A model generated the notes under the pieces. That model saw only the letters and a program-made list of their open reading frames with translations. It had not been told where the DNA came from and did not search any database. Source: a virus. Taken from it: a stretch of DNA of 36,041 nucleotides. Shown piece by piece: positions 2,434 to 33,280 of the stretch. Position numbers and translations under genes: made by a program. Location: the IMG/VR virus record IMGVR_UViG_3300047562_001072, positions 1 to 36,041 of that record; one strand, given 5' to 3'. The stretch's first letter is position 1, and the number at the start of each line of letters is the position of its first letter.

Positions 2434-3959
2434 TGGCGACGAAACCGTACAGGATTTTAGACAGAAGAGGTAAGCGGACCAGCGCAGGTCAAGCGCCAGT
2501 CGCCAATAATAAACTTTATCCAGCGGCGACGCCAACGACAGACAGGCGCAGCACACCGCAGCTTGATTACGACGCTTACAACCTGGTCAGCACGACCGGC
2601 CGGCGCAACCTGATGAACGCAGGGCGCTATCTGATGGCGGGTAACAGCGTTGTCAGATCGGCGGTTACTGACATGGTCCGTTTGAGCGCATCGAATTACC
2701 AGATGCACTTTTACACGCAGGACGCGGACTGGAACTCGCGCGCGGAAGAGCTATTGCGAGGTCATGATCTAATCTGCGACATGCGCGGGGGCGGGTACAA
2801 CATGCGCACGATCACGGAATTTATCGTCCGTGCGCCATACGTTGACGGAGATATTGGGATCATCAAATTTTTTACTCCGGCGGGTTACCCAATGTATCAA
2901 TGCGTACCAGCGCATCGGATCATGTCGCCAAGCGGGATCCAGAACGGAATCATCACCGGCGGGCGTTATGATGGCATGCGGTACATTGACGGAGTCATCG
3001 TCAACGACTACCTGCGGCCGATGGCTTATTTGGTTTCCGTCGGATCTGACAAGCGTTACAGCGCTGACGTGATGGCGGTACCTGCGTCTGACATGGTCCT
3101 GGCGTACGTGCCAGAGTTTCCTGACCAGGTGCGCGGGTACTCTCAATTAGGCGCATCTATTTTTGATTGGCAGGACGTTCAAGACACACGTCGTTTCGAC
3201 CTGATCGGGCGCAAGGTGCGGGCATCTCGGGCGATGATTATCCACAACGAGAGCGGCGAAGCAGATGAGACGCAGCGGATATTGGATGACGGGCTGGACA
3301 TCACCGACAACAAGTTGATCTCCATCAGTAAAGAGACCTTGGACGGCGGAACTATTGAGTATTTTAAAGCATCCACCGGGGCCAAGATCGAAGCCATACC
3401 GGACGACCGACCAAGCACAAACGGAATGGAGTTTGATCGGATGGTCACACGTGACGCGCTGGCAAGTATCGGCTGGAGTTACGACTACGCCATTGACCCA
3501 ACCAAGGCAGGCGGCGCTCAAATGCGAGTGGTGATTGAAAAGATCAACCGGACCATTGCACACATCCAGCGCACTTTGATTGAGCCTGTCCGACGGCAAC
3601 TGGATAACTGGCGGATCAACGTATTTATGCAGCGCGGAGATCTGCCGTTTAATCCTGATTGGATGCGGTTTAGATACCAGGTGCCTGCCAAGTTGACAGC
3701 AGACGCTAAGTATCAGAGCCAGGTCGATCTCATGGAGTACGCTGCCGGGTTTACAACGCAGGAGCGCATTGCCGCGAACAGATCGTCAAATTGGGAGGAC
3801 GATCAGGACCAAAAAATCCGGGAAATTAAACGGGCGATTGAGCGAGCAAACGCGGAGGGCATTGACCCGATGTATCTGCTGTCAGGAATCGCAAATCAGA
3901 ATTTACTGTCAATTTTAGCAACTCAAGATGCTGCACAATTTACACAAACTAGCGACTAA
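2433..3959 (+). CDS. portal protein, lambda gpB family
   Basis: 508 aa, forming the dodecameric ring at the DNA entry vertex. Family-typical features: an N-terminal LDYDAYN near residue 44, GRRNLMNAGRYLMAGNSVVRSAV near 56-78, VPAHRIMSP near 158, and the long-helix segment YAIDPTKAGGAQMRVVIEKINRT near 355. Length agrees with lambda gpB (533 aa). Its last 32 bases overlap the protease gene, which suggests translational coupling. Confidence 0.9.
   Translation: MATKPYRILDRRGKRTSAGQAPVANNKLYPAATPTTDRRSTPQLDYDAYNLVSTTGRRNLMNAGRYLMAGNSVVRSAVTDMVRLSASNYQMHFYTQDADWNSRAEELLRGHDLICDMRGGGYNMRTITEFIVRAPYVDGDIGIIKFFTPAGYPMYQCVPAHRIMSPSGIQNGIITGGRYDGMRYIDGVIVNDYLRPMAYLVSVGSDKRYSADVMAVPASDMVLAYVPEFPDQVRGYSQLGASIFDWQDVQDTRRFDLIGRKVRASRAMIIHNESGEADETQRILDDGLDITDNKLISISKETLDGGTIEYFKASTGAKIEAIPDDRPSTNGMEFDRMVTRDALASIGWSYDYAIDPTKAGGAQMRVVIEKINRTIAHIQRTLIEPVRRQLDNWRINVFMQRGDLPFNPDWMRFRYQVPAKLTADAKYQSQVDLMEYAAGFTTQERIAANRSSNWEDDQDQKIREIKRAIERANAEGIDPMYLLSGIANQNLLSILATQDAAQFTQTSD
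3911..3923 (+). repeat. AATTTTAGCAACT element before the protease start
   Basis: This 13-mer lies 4 nt before the protease ATG. The identical 13-mer recurs 8 nt before the capsid ATG (5092-5104). Neither start has a Shine-Dalgarno site. This copy lies inside the portal coding region; the other is non-coding. Confidence 0.5.
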
Positions 3960-24072: not shown

Positions 24073-24237
24073 ATGGAAACGAGAAAAATAACCATAAGGG
24101 AAATTATATCTGATTATAACCTCTGGATGGAATACGTTGACCCGTCCGGGGTTGACTCAGAACAAAAATTTAACTCCATGTCATTCGGCGAAAAGCTGGA
24201 CATCATCAAAGTTTGTTTTGGCATTGAAACTATATAA
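24073..24237 (+). CDS. 54-aa unknown protein
   Basis: Starts at an ATG four bases after the previous stop. The product is METRKITIREIISDY..., acidic in the middle (EYVDPSGVDSEQ) and ending LDIIKVCFGIETI. It is too short for domain calls. Tight spacing supports it being real. Confidence 0.45.
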   Translation: METRKITIREIISDYNLWMEYVDPSGVDSEQKFNSMSFGEKLDIIKVCFGIETI

Positions 24238-24241
24238 CGCC

Positions 24242-24349
24242 ATGGAAACACTCAGATTTCTCATATACTCGCTGTTATGCGCGTTACGTCCAGGCCCGTT
24301 AGATGAGGCCGCCAGCGCCGACCAGGACGCCACAGAATTTCCGCGTTAG
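24242..24349 (+). CDS. 35-aa micropeptide, possible
   Basis: Starts at an ATG four bases after the previous stop, following the same spacing. A hydrophobic N-terminal half (LRFLIYSLLCAL) is followed by a polar half. It ends at the first hairpin of the structured non-coding region. Low confidence because of length. Confidence 0.3.
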   Translation: METLRFLIYSLLCALRPGPLDEAASADQDATEFPR

Positions 24350-24525
24350 CGGATTCCCACCATACCAACCAAAACTCACCTCGCTCCGGCTGGATACCGG
24401 GGCGAGGCTTCAAAAAGATCCTGCGCGTTAGCGGTTGAAACCTTTAACGCCTGGGATCACCGGGGCAGGCATGAAGCCTGTTAATTTAGTCCACGCCGAT
24501 TGAGCGAGTCACTCGAATCGGCAAA

Positions 24526-24553
24526 CCCTGCCTCCCGCGTGGGATGTGCAGGG
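24526..24553 (+). repeat. 28-nt hairpin unit A
   Basis: Outer stem CCCTGC/GCAGGG and an inner TCCC/GGGA, followed by ACAATTT. Same length and layout as units B and C, which lie 102 and 198 nt downstream; sequence is more divergent. Confidence 0.5.
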
Positions 24554-24627
24554 ACAATTTCCGGCGCAATAACGCGCCAGAAAAACTAAACATAAATCTT
24601 GGTCGATTCAGTGTTTAGTCACCTATT

Positions 24628-24655
24628 CCCGGCTCCACGTGTGTGGATGCCCGGG
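24628..24655 (+). repeat. 28-nt hairpin unit B
   Basis: Outer CCCGG/CCGGG, inner TCCA/TGGA around the loop CGTGTG, ending GCCCGGGA. It shares loop and outer stem with unit C, but the inner stem differs on both sides. Confidence 0.7.
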
Positions 24656-24723
24656 AGGTTAACGGATTTCGAGGTAATTCCGCCTCGATAAAAAGAAACA
24701 AATCTCAAGCGTTTCTTTAACAA

Positions 24724-24751
24724 CCCGGCCTCACGTGTGTGAGTGCCCGGG
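24724..24751 (+). repeat. 28-nt hairpin unit C
   Basis: Outer CCCGG/CCGGG, inner CTCA/TGAG around the same loop CGTGTG, followed by ACAATTTT, 20 nt before the ATG of the next gene. Compared with unit B the inner pairs changed together, keeping the stem. Confidence 0.7.
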
Positions 24752-24771
24752 ACAATTTTCAAAAAAATATC

Positions 24772-25029
24772 ATGAAAAAAATCAGCGTAGTCAACGGAAC
24801 AGAGGCGGCTTTAATTATGGGGTGCGCCAAAAGCAACGTCATTAACATCAGCGACAAACTCGGTTGGGAGTACGAGCGGCGCGGGAACTCTAAGTATTAC
24901 CGACTAGCCGATATCTGCGGGCATGCCGGATGTACGCAAAAGGAGGGACTGCGGCGCGTCGATGATTATCGTGCGTCAAAGGGTTTGCCATCTGATGTCA
25001 AAATTGAGTTTCCGGGGGTGTCAAAATGA
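24772..25029 (+). CDS. small HTH DNA-binding protein
   Basis: 85 aa. An N-terminal helix-turn-helix pattern (GTEAALIMGCAKSNVINISDKLGW) is followed by a wing-like YERRGNSKYYRLADI and a helical tail. It resembles small excisionase or Nu1-type DNA-binding proteins. It is the first gene of the early operon, directly after the structured region, so a regulator or origin-binding role is plausible. Confidence 0.55.
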   Translation: MKKISVVNGTEAALIMGCAKSNVINISDKLGWEYERRGNSKYYRLADICGHAGCTQKEGLRRVDDYRASKGLPSDVKIEFPGVSK

Positions 25030-26003
25030 TTCCTGCATGGACGCAGAAACACTGCGAGCCAGTGCCAGGCGAGTGGCACGAAAACCGGCGCCGGGTCATC
25101 ACCGGGACGGACATCGCCAGCATAATGGGTGAAAATCCATATCAAAGCGCGTTTGAATTGTGGCTGAGTAAAAAGGGCGAACTGGAACGCCAGCCAGACA
25201 ATGAGGCTATGCGGATCGGGCGCATTGTAGAACCTGGACTCAGGATGGACGCGACACAGCGTTACGGTGAGGTCGCCGAATGCCTCAACATGCTCCAGAG
25301 TAAAAAATGGACTATCATGGGAGGCACACCGGACGGACTCAGAGTTGAAGCGCCTTGGTTGTTCGAATTTAAAACCGCCGGGATACGCAATAGCTGGGCA
25401 ACGTCCGACCTGTCACGGACGTCCTGGGGGCAGGAGGGAACTGATCAGGTGCCACCGCATTACCTGTATCAGTGCATGTGGTACATGGGGTTGACAGGCG
25501 CGGATCAGTGTAACCTCGTCGCGTTGATCTCCAATCACGGCATCCTGGAATACATTATCCCGCGGGACCAAGAGTTGATCGAGTACATGGTTGAGCAGGC
25601 GCAAGAATGGTGGAATGTGCATATCGTTAAAGACATCCAGCCGGATCTTGAATGGTCACCTAAAGTTGAGGATTGGATCAAGCGAAGGTATCCGACCACA
25701 GACAAGGCCAAAGTCATTGAGGCCGATCAGGAAACGGCTGACATGATCCGCGAATATAGCACGATCCGATCACAGCTCAAACAACTGGAGGCGGAGGAAA
25801 AGCAGCTCAAACTGGAGTTACTGGAACGTGTAGGCGACGCCTATAAACTGACCAGCGACGCGGGAACGATCACATGCCCTGAAGTTAAAGGGCGCGAGTC
25901 AGTAGACTGGAAACAACTGGCAGATGATCTGCGAATTGATCCAGCAGTTATCGCCAGGTACACACGCACAGGAAAATCAACAAGACAATTCAGATTCAAG
26001 TAA
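25026..26003 (+). CDS. YqaJ/lambda-exonuclease-like nuclease
   Basis: 325 aa. It degrades one strand of double-stranded DNA ends so that RecT can anneal the other. Conserved marks: RRRVITGTDIASIMGENPYQS (residues about 19-39), GGTPDGL with the metal-binding Asp near 101, and EFKTAG with the E-x-K pair near 112. A C-terminal coiled coil (about 240-275) is added. Starts at ATGA overlap with the HTH gene, and recT follows. Exonuclease plus annealase is the Red/RecET arrangement. Confidence 0.88.
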   Translation: MIPAWTQKHCEPVPGEWHENRRRVITGTDIASIMGENPYQSAFELWLSKKGELERQPDNEAMRIGRIVEPGLRMDATQRYGEVAECLNMLQSKKWTIMGGTPDGLRVEAPWLFEFKTAGIRNSWATSDLSRTSWGQEGTDQVPPHYLYQCMWYMGLTGADQCNLVALISNHGILEYIIPRDQELIEYMVEQAQEWWNVHIVKDIQPDLEWSPKVEDWIKRRYPTTDKAKVIEADQETADMIREYSTIRSQLKQLEAEEKQLKLELLERVGDAYKLTSDAGTITCPEVKGRESVDWKQLADDLRIDPAVIARYTRTGKSTRQFRFK

Positions 26004-26012
26004 TAAAAGTTT

Positions 26013-26969
26013 ATGAACAAGCATTTAACAAAACCGACAACGGATCTCAAAAAACTGATCAACAGCTCCACCATGATGGAGCAATTCCGTAGAGCATTGC
26101 CGAGACACCTGTCTCCAGATCGCTTCGCAAGGATCGCAATCACGGCACTGACTCGCACGCCAAAACTTCAGCAATGCACGCCGGAGAGTTTGATGAAGTG
26201 CCTGCTGGATTTATCAGCAGCAGGGCTGGAACCGGATGGACGACGAGCGCATTTGATACCATACGGAAACGAATGCACGCTGATTATTGATTACAAGGGA
26301 CTGGTCGAACTGATCCGCAGAAGCGGCGAAGTTGTTGGACTGCGCGCTGAAACCGTTTGCGAGTTTGACGAGTTTTTCTGGATCAATGGAGAGATCACAC
26401 ACAAGGTTGACTGGAGACGACCAAGGGGTGAGGTCCAAGCTGTCTACGCTGAGGCAAAGATGAAGGATGGAGAGACTCAAACCGCTGTGATGACGCGGGA
26501 AGAGGTTGAAGAGATCCGAAAGAGAAGCCGAGCTGGAAATAATGGACCTTGGGTTTCTGACTGGTCCGAAATGGCCAAAAAGACAGCAGTGCGCCGATTG
26601 TCAAAGATGCTCCCACTGTCAAGCGAGGTGGCTCAAAACATCGCAGCAGACGACAACCAATTTGCTCCAGAGGATCGAATTGAAGCGGTTGAGGTTGAGT
26701 CTGAAGCCGTTGAAGAAAAACCAATCAGCCGAACAGAACAACTCAAAGCCAAGGCGAAAGCCGCTAAGGCAGATGCTAAGGCGCCACTTGATGAACTGCT
26801 GGACCTATGCGAGCGCGACGGGGTACGAGTGGTTGAGGATTTAATTCCTTGGATCAAAACAAACGACCCAGCCAGCGAGGAGTTTGAGACACTGACGGAT
26901 TTGAGCCAGGCAACGCTTAAGCTGGTGATTAAATCCTGGGACCAAGTGGTTGAAGATGTGAAAAAGTGA
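26013..26969 (+). CDS. recT: RecT-family single-strand annealing protein
   Basis: 318 aa. It anneals complementary single strands during phage recombination. Family pattern: ARIAITALTRTPKLQQCTPESLMKCLLDLSAAGLEPDGRRAHLIPYG (about 45-91), then IDYKGLVELIRRSG and MAKKTAVRRLSKMLPLS near 188-204. An acidic and Lys/Ala-rich tail (EAVEVESEAVEEKP) follows. Directly after the nuclease gene. Confidence 0.92.
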   Translation: MNKHLTKPTTDLKKLINSSTMMEQFRRALPRHLSPDRFARIAITALTRTPKLQQCTPESLMKCLLDLSAAGLEPDGRRAHLIPYGNECTLIIDYKGLVELIRRSGEVVGLRAETVCEFDEFFWINGEITHKVDWRRPRGEVQAVYAEAKMKDGETQTAVMTREEVEEIRKRSRAGNNGPWVSDWSEMAKKTAVRRLSKMLPLSSEVAQNIAADDNQFAPEDRIEAVEVESEAVEEKPISRTEQLKAKAKAAKADAKAPLDELLDLCERDGVRVVEDLIPWIKTNDPASEEFETLTDLSQATLKLVIKSWDQVVEDVKK

Positions 26970-31136: not shown

Positions 31137-31166
31137 ATGTTGAAAACTAAAACAAAAAAAATATGA
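31137..31166 (+). CDS. 9-aa leader peptide overlapping mom start, possible
   Basis: ATG at 31137 encodes MLKTKTKKI and stops at TGA 31164-31166, which overlaps the ATG of the next gene. Four of nine codons are Lys (AAA). Ribosomes stopping here could restart at the Mom-like gene. Short leader, so low confidence. Confidence 0.3.
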   Translation: MLKTKTKKI

Positions 31167-31852
31167 GCATGATTAAACAATTTATTATTCAAAAAATACC
31201 AAGCAAAGAAACTAAGCCATGGTTGCTCAATCGTCATTATGCACGAAGGATGTGTTCTATTTCTTATGCGTTTGGAGCGTATAGAGAAGGAATAAATTAT
31301 GGAGTGGTAACGTATGGAACTCCTTCAAGCCCAAAATTACGCGAAGGAATAGCAGGAAAGGAATGGGCAGAGTATGTTATAGAGTTGAACCGTCTTTGTT
31401 GTGTAAGTGAAAAAAATCTTGCCAGTCGTTTAGTAAGTAAATCTTTAAAAATGCTTCCAAAGCCTTCTATAGTTGTCAGTTATGCCGACATAAAGCAAGG
31501 GCATATTGGATATGTTTACCAAGCTGCAAATTTTTTATATACTGGACTTAGCGCGAAACGAACTGATTGGAAAATAAAAGGCCAAGAGCATCTTCATGGA
31601 ACAACCGTTGCGGATTTAAGCAGGGGGCAAAATAACCGAGTTGAATGGATGCGCAAAAAGTACGGTGAAGATTTTTATTTAGAAGAACGAACACAAAAGC
31701 ATAGATATGTATATATATGTGCCAGCAATAAGCAAAAAACAGAAATAATTAAATCTTTAAAATACACTATTCATCCATACCCAAAAGGGGAAAGTGTTAA
31801 ATACCATGCTGAAAATAAAATTGAATTGCAAACGACTTTTTCATTAAAATAA
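31163..31852 (+). CDS. Mom-like DNA adenine modification protein
   Basis: 229 aa. Pattern of the phage Mu Mom family (GNAT-fold, adenine to N6-carbamoylmethyladenine): PWLLNRHYARRMCSISYAFGAY, GVVTYGTPSSPKLREGI, VIELNRLCCVSEKNLASRLVSKSL, VVSYADIKQGHIGYVYQAANFLYTG. Such a modification blocks many restriction enzymes. The gene is distinctly AT-rich and has no GATC site, unlike its neighbours, which points to recent transfer. Family is recognised from the sequence; the exact chemical product is inferred. Confidence 0.82.
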   Translation: MSMIKQFIIQKIPSKETKPWLLNRHYARRMCSISYAFGAYREGINYGVVTYGTPSSPKLREGIAGKEWAEYVIELNRLCCVSEKNLASRLVSKSLKMLPKPSIVVSYADIKQGHIGYVYQAANFLYTGLSAKRTDWKIKGQEHLHGTTVADLSRGQNNRVEWMRKKYGEDFYLEERTQKHRYVYICASNKQKTEIIKSLKYTIHPYPKGESVKYHAENKIELQTTFSLK

Positions 31853-33106: not shown

Positions 33107-33280
33107 TTGACAGGTGGGATTTAGTCGGGCATGTTGGCCGGCAGTCTTATCCACGGACTTTAAAACTATGAGAAAGCAAATCAATCAAACCCCAATCTCC
33201 CTGCATTGTGCGGCTCTCATAGGCCGGTGGAACTCAGTGTAGGGAGATTGGGGTTTTTTGTTATCTAAGCACAGCACAGA
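33107..33280 (+). ncRNA. candidate structured RNA or leader before 33281
   Basis: A 175-bp gap with TTGACA at 33107 (a weak -10 follows), an AGTC/GACT hairpin (33143-33161), CTATGAGA at 33166-33173, and the 16-bp-stem hairpin below. CTATGAGA is complementary to TCTCATAG in that hairpin's loop (33215-33222), so a pseudoknot or a switch between two structures is possible. It could be a separate small RNA or a leader controlling the next gene. Confidence 0.45.
33187..33259 (+). terminator. long-loop terminator or attenuator, 16-bp stem
   Basis: AAACCCCAATCTCCCT (33187-33202) pairs perfectly with 33241-33256, followed by further Ts to 33259. The 38-nt loop holds a CGGC/GCCG mini-stem. Stem and T-run are terminator-like, but the loop is large, and it sits 22 nt before the next ATG. 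Confidence 0.7.

What the first reader, a model, noticed from the sequence alone, without database searches (positions are those of the whole stretch)
24341..24771. About 420 bases with no gene and at least ten hairpins, between late and early operons
The density of perfect stems is far above what surrounds it, and the stretch lacks any credible reading frame in a genome that is otherwise tightly packed. It is not a known RNA class I can recognise. It could be a structured phage RNA, an origin, a packaging signal or a set of processing sites.
Basis: partly seen in the sequence, partly recalled or inferred. Interest (0 to 1): 0.82.

Follow-up and report, generated by a model that had tools for sequence, protein, structure and literature searches.

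The report
Phage hairpin array beside anti-CRISPR gene
A bacterial virus carries about 430 bases with no gene that fold into a chain of twelve hairpins, right after a gene that looks like a known CRISPR inhibitor; the folding is real and partly preserved by paired mutations, but its job is unknown and no relative was found.

Summary
Window 24341-24771 is the most strongly folding stretch sampled in this 36 kb phage: z = -8.0 to -8.5 on the + strand and -6.9 to -7.5 on the - strand, with no shuffle folding as well. It forms twelve hairpins in a row, most with pair probability 0.86-1.00. No ORF longer than 47 aa lies wholly inside. Three hairpins (24526-24553, 24628-24655, 24724-24751) are paralogous copies 102 and 96 nt apart. 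Three of their nine shared pairs changed on both sides, none is broken, and all share two one-base bulges on the 3' side. This points to a maintained structure, most easily a sense-strand RNA. The gene just upstream (24073-24237) is an AcrIE4-like anti-CRISPR; the early recombination operon starts just downstream. No search gave a convincing homologue. The hairpins resemble Verrucomicrobiota type I-E CRISPR repeats no more than the rest of the phage does, so a repeat-mimicking RNA anti-CRISPR is not supported, though the neighbourhood fits. Best reading: a structured leader or noncoding RNA of the early operon with tandem bulged hairpins as binding units. The mechanism stays inferred.

The parts
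24073..24237 (+). AcrIE4-like anti-CRISPR gene (54 aa), last recognisable gene before the array
   Evidence: Pfam PF25703 30.6 bits vs cut-off 27; AcrIE4-F7 structure 7vzm E=3.7e-6; 36-38% to Pseudomonas phage acr-locus protein
24242..24349 (+). 35-codon ORF, coding status uncertain; its stop lies in the loop of hairpin 1
   Evidence: sequence
24341..24771 (+). Noncoding array of twelve hairpins
   Evidence: z -8.0 to -8.5; no long ORF
24341..24352 (+). Hairpin H1, CCGC-GTTA-GCGG
   Evidence: pair probability 0.98
24379..24407 (+). Hairpin H2, 11 bp
   Evidence: -21.3 kcal/mol, P=1.00
24417..24459 (+). Hairpin H3, long, with internal mismatches
   Evidence: -21.4 kcal/mol, P=0.96
24466..24481 (+). 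Hairpin H4
   Evidence: P=1.00
24495..24522 (+). Hairpin H5
   Evidence: P=0.86
24526..24553 (+). Hairpin H6, first copy of the bulged hairpin family
24560..24581 (+). Hairpin H7, hexaloop AAUAAC
   Evidence: P=1.00
24585..24620 (+). Hairpin H8, A+T-rich
   Evidence: P=0.97 on +, 0.12 on -
24628..24655 (+). Hairpin H9, second copy of the bulged hairpin family
24669..24688 (+). Hairpin H10, hexaloop AAUUCC closed by a U-G pair on the + strand
   Evidence: P=0.97
24692..24718 (+). Hairpin H11, A+T-rich
   Evidence: P=0.97
24724..24751 (+). Hairpin H12, third copy of the bulged hairpin family, 20 nt before the next ATG
24772..25029 (+). First early-operon gene (85 aa), orphan; HTH-like by eye only
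   Evidence: no significant match in Pfam, PHROGs, phages or viral contigs
25026..26003 (+). YqaJ/RecE-type exonuclease
   Evidence: PF09588 E=1.7e-24
26013..26969 (+). RecT annealing protein
   Evidence: PF03837 E=2.1e-48

Best explanation
The stretch is a sense-strand structured RNA at the junction of the late/anti-CRISPR genes and the early recombination operon. It most likely works in cis as the long 5' leader (or intercistronic leader) of the early operon that begins at 24772. The tandem bulged hairpins H6, H9 and H12 would be repeated binding units for a protein of phage or host, controlling elongation, processing or stability of the early transcript. Shown: the structure, its statistical excess, the paralogous hairpins with compensatory changes, the location. 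Inferred: that it is transcribed, that it acts in cis, that a protein binds the hairpins.
For: Strongest fold sampled in the genome, z -8.5. Three paralogous hairpins with three pairs changed on both sides and 100% of cells paired; sliding the partners drops pairing to at most 59%. Two one-base bulges on the 3' arm and a G[U/C]GU loop recur in all three copies, which an RNA-binding hairpin would keep and a DNA palindrome need not. The + strand, in the sense of the genes, has the better z (-8.5 vs -7.5) and a centroid energy equal to its MFE. H12 ends 20 nt before the ATG at 24772. By precedent, two AcrIE4-bearing phages (L180, L182) carry a conserved two-hairpin leader before small genes in the same acr neighbourhood.
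Against: No promoter-like site above chance and no terminator. No homologous element in any relative, so pairing conservation between species is untested. The strand difference is small, and G-U evidence is mixed: H2, H3 and H10 favour +, H7 favours -. With only three copies, shuffled columns reach the observed covariation in 15 of 500 trials.
Confidence: 0.42

Rival explanations
1. A trans-acting noncoding RNA, processed or standalone, of unknown target, for example a decoy for a host or defence RNA-binding protein.
For: Beads-on-a-string design with repeated bulged hairpins; sits beside an anti-CRISPR gene, where counter-defence genes cluster.
Against: No promoter or terminator of its own recognised; no Rfam match.
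Confidence: 0.2
2. A DNA-level element (origin, recombination or packaging site) in which the palindromes act as cruciforms or protein sites.
For: The hairpins also form with DNA parameters, z -7.35; recombination and replication genes follow directly.
Against: Asymmetric bulges are kept between copies; no skew turn at this point; the packaging genes are elsewhere on the map.
Confidence: 0.16
3. An RNA anti-CRISPR (Racr): the hairpins imitate CRISPR repeats and occupy Cas6 or Cascade.
For: AcrIE4-like gene directly upstream; Racrs are reported next to acr genes (PMC10651486); Cas6e occurs in 28 of 387 Verrucomicrobiota genomes.
Against: I-E repeats from the Verrucomicrobiota arrays found score 8-12 against this region but 10-14 elsewhere in the window, so there is no repeat mimicry of that type. 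Racrs are solitary; here three copies lie about 100 nt apart. The host is unknown.
Confidence: 0.12
4. Remnants of duplicated leaders of lost small genes in a variable counter-defence locus, with only the last copy (H12) still used.
For: About 100-nt units each starting with the bulged hairpin; two are followed by GACAATTT, one of them just before a start codon.
Against: Compensatory rather than disruptive changes in all three copies; nine further stable hairpins are not explained.
Confidence: 0.1

Closest known systems
RNA anti-CRISPRs (Racr, solitary repeat units; PMC10651486)
   Same: Short hairpins in a phage intergenic region next to an acr gene.
   Different: No similarity to the CRISPR repeats tested; an array rather than a solitary unit; twelve hairpins over 430 nt.
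Phage antitermination leaders (lambda nut, HK022 put; from own knowledge)
   Same: Protein- or polymerase-binding RNA hairpins in the leader of an early operon.
   Different: Those are about 60-100 nt with one or two hairpins; here twelve. A boxA-like CTTTAACAA stands only before H12 and partly inside H11; no N-like protein recognised.
ROOL and GOLLD phage RNAs (PMC12286853)
   Same: Large structured noncoding RNAs of phages with unknown function.
   Different: No Rfam match; no tRNA in the window; a linear chain of hairpins rather than a branched, pseudoknotted fold; shorter than GOLLD.
Two-hairpin leader in acr loci of phages L180 and L182
   Same: Hairpin, then a hairpin with an AAU-type hexaloop, then an A-rich stretch in an AcrIE4-bearing phage.
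   Different: No sequence homology shown; AAU hexaloops are not enriched among such pairs of hairpins overall.

Membership tests
Racr / solitary repeat unit | High similarity to a CRISPR repeat | tested here: not met
   Region scores 8-12 vs 10-14 for the rest of the window against Verrucomicrobiota I-E repeats; other CRISPR types not tested
Racr / solitary repeat unit | Solitary, no similar copy within 100 bp | tested here: not met
   Paralogous copies at 24526, 24628 and 24724; the last two are 86% alike
Racr / solitary repeat unit | Intergenic, often near acr genes | tested here: met
   AcrIE4-like gene ends 104 nt upstream
Racr / solitary repeat unit | Host carries the matching CRISPR type | not testable with these tools
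   Host unknown; no spacer from 17 sampled arrays matches the phage clearly above control
Any Rfam 15 family | Score at or above gathering threshold | tested here: not met
   0 hits in window; best sub-threshold hit 20.1 vs 84 bits
tRNA / tmRNA | ARAGORN match | tested here: not met
   0 genes
Intrinsic terminator cluster | G+C stem followed by a T run | tested here: not met
   No terminator-like site inside the stretch
CRISPR array | Near-identical repeats with regular spacers | tested here: not met
   Copies 76-86% alike, only three, spacing 102 and 96
nut/put-type antitermination leader | boxA plus hairpin in an early leader, or an autonomous put fold | tested here: inconclusive
   boxA-like CTTTAACAA only before H12 by eye; no N-like gene found; location fits
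AcrIE4 family (upstream gene) | Sequence match to AcrIE4 and its Cas8e-binding acidic residues | tested here: met
   PF25703 above cut-off, 7vzm E=3.7e-6; E and D of the LWxEYxD helix are invariant, matching E19/D22 of PMC8887544

The most novel reading that the evidence does not exclude
The array is a tandem RNA counter-defence element paired with an anti-CRISPR protein: a multi-hairpin decoy that ties up a host RNA-binding defence component without copying a CRISPR repeat.
Probability: 0.1. Interest if true: 0.85.

Novelty: new variant of a known kind. Interest (0 to 1): 0.5.

Why it matters
It would give a concrete test case for RNA-based control or counter-defence outside Proteobacteria. 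It also shows an AcrIE4-like gene in a phage that is not of Pseudomonas; PMC8887544 reported AcrIE4 homologues in gamma-proteobacteria.

Tried and rejected
CRISPR-repeat mimicry: compared with repeats of Verrucomicrobiota I-E arrays, not above the rest of the window. Homologues of the hairpin family: covariance model R1 finds only the three copies in the window, nothing convincing in 60 related loci, nor in the acr-bearing loci. In 387 Verrucomicrobiota genomes the best hit, 30.6 bits, lies inside a G+C-rich ORF and is expected about 0.2 times by chance. Synteny: RecT relatives L004 and L006 have other sequence before their early genes. A shared two-hairpin module with hexaloop AAU was suggested by L180, L182, L061 and L018, but a control over all hexaloops shows no enrichment, so it is kept only as a lead. 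The DNA pattern scan for that module returned only the L180 and L182 contigs plus unrelated loci. CsrA-type sponge: GGA triplets are not in clear excess by hand count (about 9 seen, about 7 expected) and mostly lie in stems. Integron attC: wrong order of GTT and AAC boxes (read from sequence). A spacer search for the host found nothing clearly above control.

Full report
What the window is. The window is a 36,041-base IMG/VR virus record. It encodes a large terminase subunit, portal, head protease, major head protein and tape measure, then YqaJ/RecE, RecT, DNA methyltransferase, replication initiator, AAA protein and Mom. A related contig, L070, carries a match to the last 212 bases of the window just upstream of its terminase gene, so the window is close to a whole genome on a circular map. 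The annotated phage relatives that cover the terminase best include Verrucomicrobia phage P8625 (24%), and Verrucomicrobiota genomes give 31-33%. The host is therefore probably of that phylum, but this is inference.

Noticed in passing
window 24073-24237: AcrIE4-like anti-CRISPR gene in a probable Verrucomicrobiota phage; relatives at 40-61% in other environmental viruses (L178-L182).
   Followed up: yes
L050 7160-7400, also L051, L052, L054, L056, L057, L059, L060: A roughly 245-nt conserved structured noncoding element upstream of phage replication initiators; eight aligned copies, 58 predicted pairs, two with both-side changes, no Rfam match even at a loose threshold. L051 and L053 carry its last 58 nt a second time.
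   Followed up: partly
L180 about 3405-3470 and L182 about 2925-2995 and 3735-3805: Two-hairpin leaders ending in TTTAAACAC or TTTAACC before small genes in acr neighbourhoods, conserved between two phages with the first hairpin changing but still paired.
   Followed up: partly
window gene starts, e.g. 20285, 27427, 28365: Many starts lack a clear Shine-Dalgarno and several share the context TTTTAACCC-ATG.
   Followed up: no
window 33190-33255: A strong hairpin with a T run, like a canonical terminator, suggesting that ordinary terminators exist in this phage, unlike the array.
   Followed up: no
window 1-36041, L068, L070: L070 joins the window's end to its start; L068, a separate record, is 99.98% identical over 10 kb.
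   Followed up: partly
L180 494-734 and 2178-2382: Long alternating GTGCGCGTGTGCG tracts in a phage contig, possible Z-DNA-forming sequence.
   Followed up: no
window 31163-31852: Mom-type DNA modification gene (PF25680, E=1.2e-39), a further counter-defence gene in this phage.
   Followed up: no
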